Shown piece after piece: positions 14,841 through 21,496 of a DNA stretch of 64,000 bases. The notes under the pieces are model-generated. The model saw nothing but the letters and a program-made list of their open reading frames with translations, was not told the DNA's origin and did no database searches. Positions within the stretch are counted from its first letter, which is position 1. The number at the start of each line of letters is the position of its first letter. The stretch spans positions 55,368 through 119,367 of the forward strand of contig JAHDWA010000027.1 of the NCBI GenBank assembly GCA_023382535.1, written 5' to 3'. The position numbers and the translations under genes are program-made. The DNA is from Anaerolineae bacterium (GTDB taxonomy: Bacteria > Chloroflexota > Anaerolineae > 4572-78 > J111).

Positions 14841-16574
14841 ATGAGTAAAGTCAGAATTGCCAGCAAAGCCGAGGTGGCCCAGCCCGGCTGCCGGGTTTAT
14901 CATGTTAACGGGCATACCCTGGCCCTCTTTACTTCCGAGGCCGGGTTGTATGCCATTGATAACCGCTGCCCGCATATGGGCTTTCCGCTGGATAAAGGCA
15001 CAGTCCGCAATGGCATTCTAACCTGCCACTGGCACCATGCCCGCTTCGACCTGGCCTCTGGTGGAGCGTTTGATCTCTTTGCCGACGATGTCACCGCCTA
15101 CCCGGTCACGGTTGAAGGAGATGACGTGTGGGTTGACCTGAGCCAGCAGCATGATCCTCGGACCTACTACCAAAAGCGGCTGCGCGACGGCCTGGAACAG
15201 GAACTTAATCTCGTTATCGCCAAGGCCGTGATTGCCCTCATGAACCCAGCCGACCCCAGCAGTGGTAATGAACCTTTCCAAATCGGCCTAATATTTGGCA
15301 GCCGGTATCGCGCCGGCGGCTGGGCGATGGGCCAGACCATCAATACCTGTATGCGCAACCTGCTTCCTCACCTCGACCCGGCAGACCGGCCCTTGGCGCT
15401 CTATCAAGGCCTGACGGCTGTGGCCAGAGATACCGCCGGGATGGCTCCGCGCTTTGCCATAGACCCGCTGCCTGGTCCTACGGTTGATCTAAAAACGCTC
15501 AAGACTTGGTTCCGCCAATTTGTTGAAGTGCGTGATGGCGAAGGCGCGGAACGTTGTCTGGCAACGGCGCTGCAAGCCGGAGCATCACCTGCTCAGATTG
15601 CCGACATGCTCTTTGCCGCCGCCACCGATCACCGTTACCTGACCATCGGCCATGTGGCCGATTTTACTAACAAGGCTTTGGAAGCATTAGATCAGGTCGG
15701 CTGGGACCATGCGCCCCTGGTGCTGCCCAGCCTGATCCCGGCCTATGTCAACGGAACCCGCATGGAAGAACGCAATGCCTGGCGGCATCCGGTAGACCTG
15801 GCGGCCATCCTTGAGGCGGCCTTTGAGCGTATCCCGGCGGCGCTGGCTCAAGGTCAAGACCGTACCGCCTCAGCCCACACCTTGAGCAGCAATCTTTCTA
15901 TTCTGCTGGGCGAAGATCCTCAGGCTATTGCCGACCTGCTGGTGCAGTTGCTGGCCGAGGGCGTGGAACCGGCCGGATTGGCCCAGATGGTCAGCTATGC
16001 CGCGGCCCGGCGCATCGCCCACTTCCATACCTCCAACGAATTTGGCGATTGGGATACGGTGCTGCACACTTTTACCTATGCTAACGCTATTCAGCACGCC
16101 GTCCGCCGCGCCCCCTCCCTTGAGCTGCTGCGGGGCGTCTTTGATGCCGCCATGTCAGTCTACCTGGATCGGTTTCTCAATATTCCGGCTGCTCCCCTGC
16201 CTAAAGTCGAGCCAACTTCTACCCCGCCGGAACTCCTTCTGGCCGAATTTCCGGCCCTGCTCAACAAGCAGCAGCAGGTCAACGAAGCAGGCCGGCTGGT
16301 GGCTCAATACCTGGCTAATGGCGGCCAGCCTGAACAAATAATCGCCGTTTTGGGAGCAATGTTGTTACGCGAAGATCAGGATTTCCATACCACTCAGACT
16401 GTCGAAGCAGCCGTCAGCCAATACCGGCTGCTGCAAGATCAGCCCGAAGCCGGACACGTGCTCATCGCCGCCGCCCGCTACCTGGCGGCTCACGCCCCGA
16501 CCCCGCGCGCACAAAATCAAACCTATCAGATCGCTTTACGGCTGCACCGGGGGGAAAGGTTGTTTGAAGGCTGA
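14841..16574 (+). CDS. Rieske [2Fe-2S] domain fused to a long helical repeat region
   Basis: A protein of 577 residues. The N-terminal Rieske domain (1-105) has all four ligands: Cys43-x-His45 (RCPHMG) and Cys62-x-x-His65 (TCHWHH), spaced as in ferredoxin-type Rieske proteins. Residues 120-577 are mostly alpha-helical. They hold at least three related segments of the form AL-x-x-G-x-x-x-x-x-I-x-x-x-L-x-x-A followed by a histidine (at about 245, 375 and 490, e.g. ARRIAHFHTSNEFGDW). This could be a helical oxidoreductase partner domain, but no catalytic motif was recognised. There is no signal peptide, so it is cytosolic. Confidence 0.8.
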   Translation: MSKVRIASKAEVAQPGCRVYHVNGHTLALFTSEAGLYAIDNRCPHMGFPLDKGTVRNGILTCHWHHARFDLASGGAFDLFADDVTAYPVTVEGDDVWVDLSQQHDPRTYYQKRLRDGLEQELNLVIAKAVIALMNPADPSSGNEPFQIGLIFGSRYRAGGWAMGQTINTCMRNLLPHLDPADRPLALYQGLTAVARDTAGMAPRFAIDPLPGPTVDLKTLKTWFRQFVEVRDGEGAERCLATALQAGASPAQIADMLFAAATDHRYLTIGHVADFTNKALEALDQVGWDHAPLVLPSLIPAYVNGTRMEERNAWRHPVDLAAILEAAFERIPAALAQGQDRTASAHTLSSNLSILLGEDPQAIADLLVQLLAEGVEPAGLAQMVSYAAARRIAHFHTSNEFGDWDTVLHTFTYANAIQHAVRRAPSLELLRGVFDAAMSVYLDRFLNIPAAPLPKVEPTSTPPELLLAEFPALLNKQQQVNEAGRLVAQYLANGGQPEQIIAVLGAMLLREDQDFHTTQTVEAAVSQYRLLQDQPEAGHVLIAAARYLAAHAPTPRAQNQTYQIALRLHRGERLFEG

Positions 16575-17255: not shown

Positions 17256-20252
17256 ATGGATGATTTAAAGAAGAACCCCGAGGATGAAGTTGAAGGTAAC
17301 GAGGTCGAGTCGCCGGCAGACGGCCCTATGCCCGATTGGATGCGTCTGGCGACCTCGGGCGGCAGCGGTAGTTCGTTGACAGAGGAAAATACGCCCGCCT
17401 GGCTCAAATCAATTCGCTCTGGACAGGGTCTTTCTAAAGATAAACCTACTGAGCCAGCCCAGCCAGCTCCACCCCCGTCTCAAGCCAGCGACGACAGCCT
17501 GTCGGATTTAGAACGACTGCTGGCCGAGGAGGGTATTGACCTCAACACCGTCGCCGAAGAACGCCCGGAGGGGGCCGAGGATATGTCGGCGCGGGATTGG
17601 CTGATTGCCACCTCCAGTGAAGAGATCATTCGCAATAAACTCGGCGCTCAACCGGCTGAAGAAGAGGCGGCGCCGCCGCCAGTTCCAACCATCGCGCCGC
17701 CCGATACTCCCCCATCCCCGCCTCAAGCGCTGCAAGCGAGTGATGACAGCCTGTCGGATTTGGAACGGCTGTTACGTGAAGAGGGTATCGAACTCGGCTC
17801 TGTCACCGAAGAGCGCCCGGAAGGGGCGGGCGGCATGTCTGCCCGTGATTGGCTGATTGCCACCTCCAGTGAAGAGATCATTCGCAATAAACTCGGCGCT
17901 CAACCCGTTGAAGAGGAGCCTGCGCCGCCTCCTGCTCCAGCTACCCCACCGCCCAACTCATCGCTGAGCGACGACAAAATGGTCGTCGAGGAAGACCTGC
18001 CCGATTGGCTGCAAGAAATTGCCGCTGACGCCTCGGAAGTCGAACCCTCTCTGGCCTTTGACACGGCGCTGGACGAGCCTGCCGGCCCGACTGAGGAGGG
18101 GCAGTTTGTAGTTGAGGAAGAACTGCCCGATTGGCTGCGGGATATGGCCGAAGAACCGGTCGCGGCCGCCGAACCGGAAGAACCTTTAACTCCGGCTGCC
18201 CCCGCTTCCTTCGCAGACGATAAAATGGTGGTTGAAGAAGATTTACCTGACTGGCTAAAAGACATGGCCGAAGAACCGGCCGCAGCAGATATAGGAACCG
18301 CTCCGCCAGTTCAAAAGCCGCCAATCTCTTCTGTGGATGATGGCCTGGTGGTTGAAGAGGATTTACCGGATTGGTTACGTGAGGCTGCCGAGCCGGTAGA
18401 GGCAGATTTACCCGAACCTGATTGGACCGATTCAGCCCCTGCTGAAGCAGACAAAATGGTAATCCAGGAGGATTTACCCGACTGGCTTCAGGAAATCGCA
18501 GAAGAACCAGCCCTCCCGGCCGAACTTAATGTAACTGGGTTGGCCGCCCCGACTCTGCCCTTCCAGGCTGAAGATAAAACAGTGGTCGAAGAGGATTTGC
18601 CGGATTGGCTGCGTGAAGCTGCTACCGATTCCGCAGCAGCTCCTGAACCGGAATTACCGCCATCCCCTCCAACTCCGATCAGTACCGACAAGATGGTCGT
18701 CGAGGAAGATTTGCCCGATTGGTTGCGCGAGGTCGAGGTTGGCAGCAGTGAATCTGAGGTGATGGCGGCGCCAACTGAGCTGAGCGGTGCTGATTTGGGC
18801 GAAGCTGAGGGGGATGAAGATTTACCCGACTGGTTGCGTGAGGTGGAGGTCAGCAGTCTGGAAGATAACCTAGCTTTACCCCTGGTGAAACCTCAGGCCG
18901 AAGCGCCCTCCGAATCAGACTTTACCATTAGCACGCCACTGGGGGATGAAGAACTTGACCTGCTCGACGAAGAAGATTTACCAGCCTGGTTAAAAGAAGT
19001 GCAAGAGCGGAATGGTCAAGAACCGGGTGATGCCTCAGCTCTTCCAACAGTTACCCCTGTAGACAGTTCCGAGTTAATTGAGGAAGCAGAGTTACCCGAT
19101 TGGTTGCGTGAAGCTCAGGAGGAGACGACTCCCCTGACTTTTGAAGAGGTGGAGCCAATAGCCTCAGAGGACCAAATGACGGGCGGCGAAGAGTTGCCAG
19201 ATTGGTTACGCGAAGAACAGTTTAGCCTCGATGAACCATTTGAAGCCTCAGAACCCAGCCCGGAAACCCTGATCGAGACCGTTGCCGAAAGTGACATGGT
19301 TATAGCTGAGGACCTGCCTGATTGGCTGCAAGAAGTTCGAGACGAAACGCCGGAGGAAGCGTCTCTCGAAGCGGAGATACCCGCTCCAGTTCCGGCGGTT
19401 AGCCCCACCCACCTTGACACCGACGAACTGGTAGACGAGGAGGGTCTGCCTGATTGGCTGCGCGACGCCGCCGAAGAGGAAGAGGAAGCTAAGCCGCTGG
19501 TGGTCGAAGAAGCGCCCGTTCCTGTCGCCGTAACCAGCCCGACCTCCCTTGACGTTGACATAATGATAGACGAGGAGGGTCTGCCTGATTGGCTGCGCGA
19601 CACCGCCGAAGAGGAAGAGGAAGCTGAGCCGCTGGTAGTCGAAGAAATGTTATCGGCTCCTGAACCAGTGGTAATAGCTAGTGAAACTGTGGCTGCCGCG
19701 GTCGAGGTAGAAGAAATCGAAGAGGCAGTGCCGGCGGAAGAAATGTCGGAGGAGGAGGAAATCACTCCGGTGAGCCAGCCTGAGCCTGAACCTGCTGTCG
19801 TGAGCGAACCCGAAAGGGTATCCGCCCCTAGTGGGATTCCCGACTGGCTGCAAAAGCTGCGCCAAGTTGACGAGGAAGAAATTGTACCGGTGTCCGTCAC
19901 CCCTATGCCGCTGCCAGCACCGGCCGCTGCAGCCAGACCTGCGCCTCAACCCGTGTACGCCCAGGCAGTAGCGGCCCCGCCCCCCGACATCCCGGCTGAC
20001 GCGGAAGAGCGGCTCAAACACGCCCGAACGGCGCGCGATAAGGGTGACATTAATGAGGCGGTGGGTATTTACGACTCGCTGGTGGTGAATGGCGTTTACC
20101 TGAACAAAATTATTGAGGATATGCAACAAATCATTAAGCTGCATCCGGGCAACTATCTCCTCTATCAATTAATGGGCGATGCCATGATGCGCGATGGCCG
20201 TTTACAGAGCGCCCTCAATGCCTACCGCGAAGCCCTCTCAAAACTATCGTAA
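17256..20252 (+). CDS. Acidic protein with about 19 LPDWL-type motifs and C-terminal TPR-like domain
   Basis: A protein of 998 residues, very rich in Glu, Asp, Pro and Ala, with no signal peptide or membrane helix. About 19 short motifs, mostly EEDLPDWLREAAEE-like, are spaced 25-60 residues apart and joined by disordered acidic/proline linkers. The first few are divergent (PMPDWMRLAT, TPAWLKSIRS, SARDWLIATS). The last 90 residues (AEERLKHARTARDKGDINEA ... NAYREALSKLS) look like tetratricopeptide helices. A scaffold that displays many copies of a docking peptide is the natural inference. I chose ATG 17256; an earlier start at 17202 lacks a Shine-Dalgarno. Function unknown. Confidence 0.75.
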   Translation: MDDLKKNPEDEVEGNEVESPADGPMPDWMRLATSGGSGSSLTEENTPAWLKSIRSGQGLSKDKPTEPAQPAPPPSQASDDSLSDLERLLAEEGIDLNTVAEERPEGAEDMSARDWLIATSSEEIIRNKLGAQPAEEEAAPPPVPTIAPPDTPPSPPQALQASDDSLSDLERLLREEGIELGSVTEERPEGAGGMSARDWLIATSSEEIIRNKLGAQPVEEEPAPPPAPATPPPNSSLSDDKMVVEEDLPDWLQEIAADASEVEPSLAFDTALDEPAGPTEEGQFVVEEELPDWLRDMAEEPVAAAEPEEPLTPAAPASFADDKMVVEEDLPDWLKDMAEEPAAADIGTAPPVQKPPISSVDDGLVVEEDLPDWLREAAEPVEADLPEPDWTDSAPAEADKMVIQEDLPDWLQEIAEEPALPAELNVTGLAAPTLPFQAEDKTVVEEDLPDWLREAATDSAAAPEPELPPSPPTPISTDKMVVEEDLPDWLREVEVGSSESEVMAAPTELSGADLGEAEGDEDLPDWLREVEVSSLEDNLALPLVKPQAEAPSESDFTISTPLGDEELDLLDEEDLPAWLKEVQERNGQEPGDASALPTVTPVDSSELIEEAELPDWLREAQEETTPLTFEEVEPIASEDQMTGGEELPDWLREEQFSLDEPFEASEPSPETLIETVAESDMVIAEDLPDWLQEVRDETPEEASLEAEIPAPVPAVSPTHLDTDELVDEEGLPDWLRDAAEEEEEAKPLVVEEAPVPVAVTSPTSLDVDIMIDEEGLPDWLRDTAEEEEEAEPLVVEEMLSAPEPVVIASETVAAAVEVEEIEEAVPAEEMSEEEEITPVSQPEPEPAVVSEPERVSAPSGIPDWLQKLRQVDEEEIVPVSVTPMPLPAPAAAARPAPQPVYAQAVAAPPPDIPADAEERLKHARTARDKGDINEAVGIYDSLVVNGVYLNKIIEDMQQIIKLHPGNYLLYQLMGDAMMRDGRLQSALNAYREALSKLS
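17481..17925 (+). repeat. 252-bp tandem duplication inside the LPDWL-array gene
   Basis: The unit starting at 17481 recurs at 17733, a period of 252 bp (84 codons). A stretch of 55 nt encoding GWLIATSSEEIIRNKLGAQP-like residues (17599 and 17851) is identical even at synonymous positions, so the duplication is recent or gene-converted. Confidence 0.85.
19434..19645 (+). repeat. 135-bp tandem duplication inside the LPDWL-array gene
   Basis: Two copies of a segment encoding DEEGLPDWLRDxAEEEEEA start at 19434 and 19569, a period of 135 bp (45 codons), with only a few base differences over about 77 nt. This is a second, independent expansion of the motif array. Confidence 0.8.
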
Positions 20253-20259
20253 TAACAGG

Positions 20260-20288
20260 GGCAGGTCTTTGACCTGCCTCTCCTTTGT
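20260..20288 (+). terminator. Hairpin directly after the LPDWL-array gene
   Basis: GGCAGGTC and GACCTGCC form an 8-bp stem around TTT, followed by TCTCCTTTG. It starts 8 nt after the stop codon. Confidence 0.6.
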
Positions 20289-20294
20289 CAGATA

Positions 20295-20326
20295 GAAAAA
20301 AGCCGGGGTAATGCCCGGTTTTTTTG
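20295..20326 (+). terminator. Intrinsic terminator before ndk
   Basis: An A-run and CCGGG pair with CCCGG and a run of seven T around GGTAATG. The second terminator in 70 nt, it separates the LPDWL-array gene from the ndk operon. Confidence 0.7.
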
Positions 20327-20412: not shown

Positions 20413-20862
20413 GTGGAACGAACGCTGATTATTATCAAACCCGACGGGGTTGAGCGGGGTCTGATCGGCCCGATCATTACCCGTTTTGAACAGCGCGGCT
20501 TGAAAATTGTTGGGATGAAGATGCTGCAAGTATCGGACAAATTGGCCCGGATGCACTATGCTGTTCACGAAGGTAAATCTTTCTTTGAACCTTTGATTCA
20601 ATATATTACTTCTGCCCCGGTTGTGGTCCTGGCCTTGGAAGGACCGCAGGTGGTTCAGGCGGCGCGCAATACCATCGGCGCAACCAAACCGGTCGAAGCT
20701 GCCGCTGGCTCGATCCGGGGTGATTTTGCCATGATGGTGGGGCGAAACCTTGTTCATGGCTCCGACAGTCCGGAAAACGGGGCGGCTGAAATTGCCCTGT
20801 GGTTTAACGAGTCTGAATTAATCAGCTATGACCGGGCCCTGGATCGCTGGATCTTGGAGTAG
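20413..20862 (+). CDS. ndk: Nucleoside diphosphate kinase
   Basis: A protein of 149 residues, the usual family length, when read from GTG 20413, which has AGGAG 7 nt upstream; an in-frame start at 20311 would add an untypical extension. It transfers the gamma-phosphate between nucleoside triphosphates and diphosphates in the cytosol. The N-terminus ERTLIIIKPDGVERGLIG and the active-site His115 in NLVHGSDSPENGAAEIALWF are canonical. It is the first gene of a likely four-gene operon with the beta-solenoid protein, a small membrane protein and nnr. Confidence 0.96.
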   Translation: MERTLIIIKPDGVERGLIGPIITRFEQRGLKIVGMKMLQVSDKLARMHYAVHEGKSFFEPLIQYITSAPVVVLALEGPQVVQAARNTIGATKPVEAAAGSIRGDFAMMVGRNLVHGSDSPENGAAEIALWFNESELISYDRALDRWILE

Positions 20863-20887
20863 TCGTACAGAAAGAAGGAGATTATTT

Positions 20888-21496
20888 ATGGCCAATGAGG
20901 AGGCTACACCCTCAAACCAAAGTGAAATTAATGTCACCGGCCAGAGTGTCAATAATATCCAGGCTGACCATGTCAACGTGCGTTATGGCCGCACCGGCGA
21001 TATTAAGGCCAATACGGTGACTGTTTCCCAGGCCGGGGCCGACCATATTGAAGGCAGTACCGTGGAATTGCGCCAGGCCGGAGCCAGAACTGTGAAAGGT
21101 TATCAAGTTACCATTCGGCAGGGTGGGGTTGTGGAAGCCAGGGCCGATACCCTTTCTGTGAGCCAGGGGGGGGTGGTCTTTGCCGAAACCAAAGAAGCTA
21201 ACCTGAACACCTCCAGCGCCGGGGCGATTCTGGCCAATGGTGACGTCACGCTTGATCAGAGCAGCGTCAAAGCTGTCTTGACCCGTGGGGAGGTCAAGAT
21301 GGACCAGAGCGGCAGTGGAGTGGTGCTGGCCCGGCGAGTTTCGACGGGGAGCAACACCGGCGTTATTTTGCTAATCGCCGGGCGGGTTGACGGCCCGGTC
21401 AATGCCGTGTTTGGCCCGGCCGCCGGGGCGGCTTTTGGCGCAGTCTTTGCCCTGGCCATTGCTCTAATTTGGTGGATCAGGCGGCGGCTGGGGTAA
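20888..21496 (+). CDS. Beta-solenoid-like protein with C-terminal membrane helix
   Basis: A protein of 202 residues. About 150 residues are made of short strand-turn units with alternating hydrophobic residues (NTVTVSQAGADHIEGSTVEL, ADTLSVSQGGVVFAETKEAN, GDVTLDQSSVKAVLTRGEVK), the look of a right-handed beta-helix like bactofilins or polymer-forming proteins. The last 30 residues form one membrane helix ending in IRRRLG, so the solenoid is tail-anchored. ATG 20888 has AAGGAG at 9 nt. It lies 25 nt after ndk and 19 nt before the next small membrane protein. No enzyme motif; a structural or scaffolding role is a guess. Confidence 0.7.
   Translation: MANEEATPSNQSEINVTGQSVNNIQADHVNVRYGRTGDIKANTVTVSQAGADHIEGSTVELRQAGARTVKGYQVTIRQGGVVEARADTLSVSQGGVVFAETKEANLNTSSAGAILANGDVTLDQSSVKAVLTRGEVKMDQSGSGVVLARRVSTGSNTGVILLIAGRVDGPVNAVFGPAAGAAFGAVFALAIALIWWIRRRLG

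What the first reader, a model, noticed from the sequence alone, without database searches (positions are those of the whole stretch)
17256..20252. A 998-residue acidic protein built of about 19 LPDWL-type motifs, apparently undescribed
The reading frame contains about 19 copies of a 10-14-residue motif (consensus E-E-D-L-P-D-W-L-R-E) in an otherwise disordered Glu/Pro/Ala chain, followed by a TPR-like domain. Such an arrangement resembles a multivalent scaffold that offers a docking peptide to one partner many times, and the TPR would be a second interaction site. No known family with this combination is recognised. It has its own promoter, two terminators after it, and is not part of a metabolic operon.
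Basis: partly seen in the sequence, partly recalled or inferred. Interest (0 to 1): 0.78.

Follow-up and report, generated by a model that had tools for sequence, protein, structure and literature searches.

The report
Bacterial disordered multi-motif TPR scaffold protein
In one bacterial phylum, an undescribed protein strings many copies of a short Trp-Leu or Phe-Leu peptide along a floppy acidic chain; it usually sits beside the gene for nucleoside diphosphate kinase, and its peptide arrays tend to occur where the genome also encodes roadblock-type signalling proteins.

Summary
ORF 17256-20252 encodes 998 residues with 19 xW[LM] motifs and a C-terminal TPR-like domain. The motifs are under selection: against the closest relative in hand, dN/dS is 0.023 in motifs and 0.231 in linkers at equal dS. 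(1) It belongs to a single-copy Chloroflexota family, usually N-TPR, acidic linker, C-TPR; the window's clade lacks the N-TPR. (2) ndk follows in 57 of 67 loci (window, named relatives, class sample) and 18 of 20 further phylum loci; in 19 of those 20 a roadblock/LC7 gene comes directly after the scaffold gene. Here two hairpins separate the gene from ndk. (3) The linker peptide changes with lineage: LPDWLxEL, PFSLEELGL (up to 31 counted) or PxIF. Linkers with 4 or more motifs track LC7 genes in the same genome: 86 of 93 with LC7, 2 of 22 without; the phylogeny-corrected test points the same way but is not significant. Best reading: a multivalent scaffold whose short helix-prone peptides dock roadblock/LC7 dimers, or something that travels with them. 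Scaffold well supported; partner inferred. No description was found in the papers searched.

The parts
17256..20252 (+). 998-residue TPR scaffold protein (P0001)
   Evidence: homologues; C-TPR profile one per matching genome
17327..17410 (+). N-terminal pair MPDWM / TPAWL, conserved among the 50 closest relatives; no N-TPR here
   Evidence: nearly invariant P26 D27 W28, P47 W49 L50; N-TPR profile negative
17490..17645 (+). first EEGIDL...MSARDWL module
17742..17897 (+). second EEGIDL...MSARDWL module
17973..19865 (+). acidic disordered array of E-E-D-L-P-D-W-L-x-E motifs, about 40 residues apart
19980..20249 (+). C-terminal five-helix TPR-like domain, the family-defining part
   Evidence: Pfam TPR_2 E 0.0067, below cut-off; AF2 pLDDT above 90; Foldseek TPR matches; A3 profile
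20257..20281 (+). hairpin without U tract after the gene
   Evidence: z -4.57
20296..20325 (+). terminator hairpin with A and U tracts, could act both ways
   Evidence: z -4.69
20413..20862 (+). ndk, nucleoside diphosphate kinase, conserved downstream neighbour
   Evidence: PF00334 E 4.4e-55

Best explanation
This is a multivalent scaffold of Chloroflexota, probably cytoplasmic (no signal peptide or membrane segment seen by eye; no predictor run). Folded TPR ends, of which the window's copy has only the C-terminal one, hold one set of partners. The long acidic disordered linker offers many copies of one short peptide (here L-P-D-W-L-x-E-L), each able to form a short helix. I infer that each peptide docks on a roadblock/LC7 dimer, the small-GTPase regulator fold that MglB belongs to. 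One chain would thus line up many LC7 dimers, bridge chains and concentrate a GTP-dependent switch, with NDK nearby in function as it is on the chromosome. SHOWN: motif array, selection on it, lineage-specific motif types, ndk linkage, LC7 linkage in the further phylum loci, LC7/motif co-occurrence. PREDICTED: disorder and short helices. INFERRED: direct docking on LC7, a GTPase circuit, clustering.
For: Selection: motif dN/dS 0.023 against linker 0.231. Predicted disorder with short helices at several motifs. Survey by the motif-free C-TPR profile: 131 of 249 genomes of the class and 89 of 301 of the phylum, one match each at E 1e-10. ndk next: 57 of 67 and 18 of 20. LC7 gene directly downstream in 19 of the 20 further phylum loci. 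Motif swap: PFSL in 10 of 75 tree rows (5-31 copies), PxIF x10 in L100. LC7 (PF03259) against 4 or more motifs: 70 of 74 with, 1 of 12 without; a later-fetched set, complete genes only, 17 of 21 and 1 of 12; all on one tree 86 of 93 and 2 of 22. Scaffold gene and LC7 in the class sample: both 103, scaffold only 28, LC7 only 20, neither 98. Precedent: in dynein intermediate chain a disordered site becomes a helix when roadblock LC7 binds (PMC9771362, passages).
Against: No interaction data. On the tree only 7 supported independent pairs differ in LC7; motif goes the same way in 3.8, the other way in 0.1, unchanged in 3.1 on average; sign test median p 0.125. Exceptions under the fixed motif rule: LC7+ but poor L101, L111, L129, L188, L180, L175, L187; LC7- but rich L158, L161. 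Among 5 LC7- genes cut by contig ends and set aside, two still show 4 or more motifs (L162, L165). LC7 loss also goes with loss of the secretion ATPase family PF00437 (present in 14 of 23 LC7- and 56 of 57 LC7+ genomes), so LC7 may mark another lost system. The LC7 gene is not near the scaffold gene in the window or any of the class and named loci of the first set. Draft-genome incompleteness can create shared absences. Some orthologues have no motif, so the motif is not essential to the family.
Confidence: 0.42

Rival explanations
1. Self-docking: the motifs bind the protein's own TPR ends, in the manner of kinesin light chain TPR domains that bind tryptophan-acidic peptides, so chains cross-link to each other without an outside partner.
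For: TPR domains can bind W-acidic peptides on the concave surface (PMC6224480, passages); matches of the C-domain include peptide-binding TPR modules; motifs and TPR lie in one chain.
Against: Domain net charges do not suit an acidic ligand: C-TPR -2 in the window, N-TPR median -9. The window's clade lacks the N-TPR and yet has 14-17 PxW[LM] motifs. The motif changes type while the C-TPR stays recognisable. Motif residues stay at low pLDDT in both AF2 models, which is weak evidence: coordinates were not inspected.
Confidence: 0.2
2. The motifs dock NDK, encoded next door, an oligomer (recalled) that would be clustered by the array.
For: Adjacency in 57 of 67 and 18 of 20 loci; an oligomeric partner suits multivalency.
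Against: ndk adjacency persists in motif-free or nearly motif-free orthologues (L083, L091, L098, L111), so ndk tracks the TPR part, not the motifs. Six loci carry a divergent longer NDK in the same place, yet five of the six have 8 or more PxW[LM] motifs.
Confidence: 0.12
3. The motifs bind some other factor (pilus ATPase, polymerase, division protein) that is lost together with LC7.
For: PF00437 loss overlaps LC7 loss.
Against: Among the 14 LC7- genomes that keep PF00437, 13 have fewer than 4 linker motifs (12 if the whole-frame count is used), so PF00437 itself fits less well. No other family was tested.
Confidence: 0.2
4. Neutral repeat expansion in a tolerant acidic spacer, without specific docking.
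For: Copy number and linker length vary greatly (0 to 46 xW[LM]).
Against: Tenfold lower dN/dS in motifs than in the spacer at equal dS; the 13 LPDWL copies use 10 different codon strings, so the array as a whole is not recent.
Confidence: 0.06

Closest known systems
SgmX of Myxococcus xanthus (TPR protein of the MglA polarity module; PMC11580455, passages)
   Same: TPR protein tied to a small-GTPase system that has a roadblock regulator
   Different: 14 TPRs, binds MglA through its last three; no motif array mentioned in the passages seen. Not compared by sequence here
Dynein intermediate chain N-terminal region (PMC9771362, passages)
   Same: Disordered chain whose site folds into a helix on binding dimeric roadblock LC7; multivalent scaffold
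   Different: Eukaryotic, one LC7 site per chain, WD40 not TPR; no homology tested or claimed
Kinesin light chain TPR with tryptophan-acidic peptides (PMC6224480, passages)
   Same: Acidic Trp peptide read by the concave face of a TPR domain
   Different: Peptide and TPR sit in different proteins; the TPR ends here are not basic
Generic bacterial TPR families (PrsT, MamA, LapB, PilW, Tgl, SctY; NCBIfam)
   Same: TPR repeats in the N-terminal part of three orthologues scanned
   Different: All are below their curated cut-offs; the nearest is SctY for L083 (64.4 of 70 bits)

Membership tests
TPR repeat proteins (fold class) | Helix pairs with TPR consensus and fold | tested here: met
   TPR_2 E 0.0067, below the Pfam cut-off; five-helix domain at pLDDT above 90; the 50 Foldseek matches listed are TPR chains judging by title, E from 1.5e-3, none at 1e-3 or better
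Chloroflexota ndk-linked TPR scaffold (this family) | C-terminal A3 profile, one per genome | tested here: met
   the window's own genome is not held
Chloroflexota ndk-linked TPR scaffold (this family) | ndk directly downstream | tested here: met
   Window ndk at 20413; 57 of 67 and 18 of 20 loci
Chloroflexota ndk-linked TPR scaffold (this family) | N-terminal TPR solenoid (in most orthologues) | tested here: not met
   Absent in the window, L001, L002, L004, L005, L006, marginal in L072; full-length N-TPR in 1 (G007, same ORF) of 7 related genomes. Not treated as a family criterion
SgmX | 14 TPRs | tested here: not met
   Only a five-helix C-domain in the window; 14 N-terminal helices plus five C-terminal ones in the relative L055
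SgmX | Binding of MglA | not testable with these tools
   No interaction test; MglA genes were not searched for
Roadblock-docking scaffold (as in dynein IC) | Peptide segment that binds an LC7 dimer | not testable with these tools
   Only co-occurrence and linkage could be tested
RHH_9 / SnAC (Pfam labels given to some relatives) | Whole-domain match above cut-off | tested here: not met
   RHH_9 18.6 of 23.4 bits, best stretch 13 residues; SnAC 12.7 of 27

The most novel reading that the evidence does not exclude
Chloroflexota use a bacterial beads-on-a-string scaffold: a TPR-capped disordered chain that strings 5-40 roadblock/LC7 dimers through a rapidly re-invented aromatic-Leu helix peptide (LPDWLxEL, PFSLEELGL, LPxIF), with NDK in the same functional unit, to build a GTP-fed signalling or polarity hub.
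Probability: 0.28. Interest if true: 0.82.

Novelty: new variant of a known kind. Interest (0 to 1): 0.6.

Why it matters
It is a single-copy protein spread through a large phylum, tied to ndk, and mostly left as "hypothetical" or "TPR repeat" in the names that the database shows. It offers a rare natural experiment: the same linker position in orthologues holds different short peptides in different lineages, and few or none where roadblock genes are missing. If the docking idea holds, it would give a group of bacterial roadblock proteins a defined peptide ligand, and a simple assay (peptide binding) would settle it.

Tried and rejected
Motif repeats in other genes: in three relatives the LPDWL DNA pattern falls almost only in this gene (11 of 13, 9 of 10, 9 of 9), so no second LPDWL array was found there. 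N-TPR moved elsewhere in the genome: no full-length match in 6 of 7 genomes, only partial TPR matches. AF2 docking of motifs on the protein's own TPRs: motifs stay at low confidence in P0001 and in the N-TPR-bearing relative L055. Fold search gave only TPR matches. Literature: no paper holds LPDWLRE, EEDLPDWL, PFSLEELGLS or LEELGLSPEEIAQLE (0 papers); the DLPDWL search listed 10 papers with 0 occurrences, of 1,238 that hold either term; joint searches on roadblock, TPR, Chloroflexi/Chloroflexus and ndk listed nothing on this protein. First motif count on the 40 extra loci was wrong because the linker was cut at the wrong place; one search replaces it, with L003 left out (no whole frame). Widening the motif to W[LMVI] was decided after seeing exceptions and gives 89 of 93 and 4 of 22; I do not rely on it.

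Full report
WHAT IS THERE. The frame 17256-20252 (+) is open for 998 residues. Of its 20 Trp, 19 are followed by Leu or Met; 17 are P[DA]W[LM], against at most 2 in 2000 shuffles. The chain is 25% Asp+Glu. The motifs between residues 240 and 870 lie mostly about 40 residues apart. Two near-N-terminal Trp belong to a separate module, EEGIDL...MSARDWL, present twice. The last 90 residues form a five-helix TPR-like domain, predicted with pLDDT above 90; most of the rest is below 60, with short helices at several motifs and modules, the modules reaching about 70. Pfam and NCBIfam have no family for it.

IT IS UNDER SELECTION. The closest relative in hand with DNA (L001, Anaerolineales bacterium H5_CFX7) is 88% identical. 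Motif codons have dN/dS 0.023, linkers 0.231, C-terminal domain 0.079, module 0.151, with dS 0.36 in motifs and 0.35 in linkers. The motif is the most constrained of these four parts. The 13 LPDWL copies use 10 different codon strings, so the array as a whole is not a recent duplication.

THE FAMILY. A motif-bearing query is biased towards motif-rich proteins (416 hits, 120 listed; those 120 have 4-23 motifs). I therefore surveyed with a profile of the C-terminal domain alone (A3). It matches 131 of 249 genomes of the class of L001 and 89 of 301 of its phylum at E 1e-10, one match each. An ORF with the domain was found in 67 of 69 of the first set, window included (not L003, L096), and in all 20 of the second. 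Most orthologues begin with a 250-residue TPR solenoid. The N-TPR profile finds nothing in the window, L001, L002, L004, L005, L006 and in nine others, some of them cut or short, and is marginal in L072. In the six genomes of the window's clade searched, no full-length N-TPR exists elsewhere; G007 has it in the same ORF. So the window's clade has most likely lost it.

THE LINKER CHANGES ITS PEPTIDE. In most class loci and in some of the 20 the repeated peptide is x-L-P-D-W-L-x-E-L or a looser xWL form. In ten of the 20 the same position holds L-x-P-F-S-L-E-E-L-G-L, 5-31 counted copies (the 5 in a gene cut by its contig). In L100 it is L-P-x-I-F, ten copies. On a tree of NDK plus C-TPR (75 rows) the states W (8 or more) 27, F 10, I 1 and none 37 need at least 13 changes. 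In the word search the three shuffles per protein reach at most 5 repeats.

NEIGHBOURS. ndk lies within 2.5 kb downstream in 57 of 67 loci, 56 on the same strand, starting 24-306 bases after the gene, and in 18 of the 20. In 19 of the 20 a roadblock/LC7 gene directly follows the scaffold gene, in 18 of them before ndk. That LC7 was not found in the fetched stretches of the first set nor in the window. In the window two hairpins separate the gene from ndk, so cotranscription here is doubtful. The ten of 67 without ndk are L055, L056, L061-L064, L066, L067, L097, L102.

THE ROADBLOCK LINK. PF03259 was searched in 88 genomes with a fetched locus: 13 have no match at E 0.001. Of 86 genomes with a countable orthologue, 70 of 74 with LC7 have 4 or more motifs (xW[LM], PFS[LF] or P[AS]IF), against 1 of 12 without. 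In the class sample scaffold and LC7 co-occur: 103 both, 28 scaffold only, 20 LC7 only, 98 neither. I then fetched all 16 remaining scaffold-positive LC7-negative genomes and 24 of 51 remaining positives, expecting the negatives to be motif-poor (the lead, not this wording, is in the notebook). Complete genes: 17 of 21 LC7-positive and 1 of 12 LC7-negative (L096 of the first set included) have 4 or more linker motifs; 8 genes cut by contig ends were set aside, 5 of them LC7-negative, of which two reach 4 (L162 with 5, L165 with 4), against my reading. On one tree with 115 rows, counting over the whole frame: 86 of 93 against 2 of 22; Fisher p 1.5e-14 takes no account of kinship. By independent pairs (7 on supported branches) motif goes with LC7 in 3.8, against in 0.1, unchanged in 3.1; median p 0.125, not significant. 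Two of the LC7-positive but motif-poor genomes (G169, G133) have only weak LC7 matches (8.6e-8, 1.5e-7). The secretion ATPase family PF00437, run as a comparison, is also missing in 9 of 23 LC7-negative genomes and in 1 of 57 positive ones; of the 14 negatives that keep it 13 have fewer than 4 linker motifs. The widespread LC7 in these genomes is a 122-residue protein with 82% mean column identity among ten chosen sequences, found in 60 of 80 genomes at E 1e-8; its neighbours vary in the loci looked at.

MECHANISM. The weight of evidence is for a multivalent scaffold. For the partner, LC7 is favoured because motif arrays and LC7 tend to come and go together and because an LC7 gene is adjacent in 19 of the 20 further loci. 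ndk is disfavoured as motif ligand since it stays adjacent to orthologues with 0-1 motifs (L083, L091, L098, L111). Self-docking on the TPRs is possible but charges do not favour it and the clade without the N-TPR has its motifs. A disordered chain that becomes a helix on roadblock LC7 is known from dynein intermediate chain (PMC9771362, passages); a TPR protein working with a small GTPase is known from SgmX/MglA (PMC11580455, passages); MglB is a roadblock protein (PMC4316618, passages). In the main text of that last survey the terms TPR and diphosphate kinase have 0 occurrences.

LIMITS. Completeness of the genomes is not told. No binding data exist. The window's own genome is not held, so its LC7 genes were not seen; its closest relative G001 has five matches. 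The small GTPases themselves were not searched for.

Noticed in passing
20828-21496 (+): 222-residue protein with repeated VxLRQAGA-like strands (beta-helix look, by eye) and a C-terminal hydrophobic stretch; no Pfam hit. Its cluster occurs two or three ORFs downstream of the scaffold gene in 7 loci (cluster 7).
   Followed up: partly
L075, L080, L085, L103, L107, L114, downstream of the scaffold gene: A divergent, longer NDK (34-40% identity over 183-187 columns) stands in the ndk position, on the opposite strand in L080; looks like replacement of ndk in place.
   Followed up: no
L135-L154 (for example L135:4755-5124): Highly conserved stand-alone roadblock/LC7 protein (82% mean column identity over 122 residues among ten sequences) with no constant neighbour seen; its ligand is unknown.
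   Followed up: partly
L008:8394-9072: Orthologue reduced to a 225-residue stub matching only the last 23 profile positions, still followed by ndk.
   Followed up: no
14841-16574 (+): 577-residue protein with an N-terminal Rieske domain and about 480 further residues without a Pfam match at E 0.01.
   Followed up: no
L187 and L175/L180: LC7-positive orthologues counted as motif-poor carry W-V variants (AWVAELREAT-like; DEIMAWVRQ-like), perhaps a fourth motif type.
   Followed up: partly
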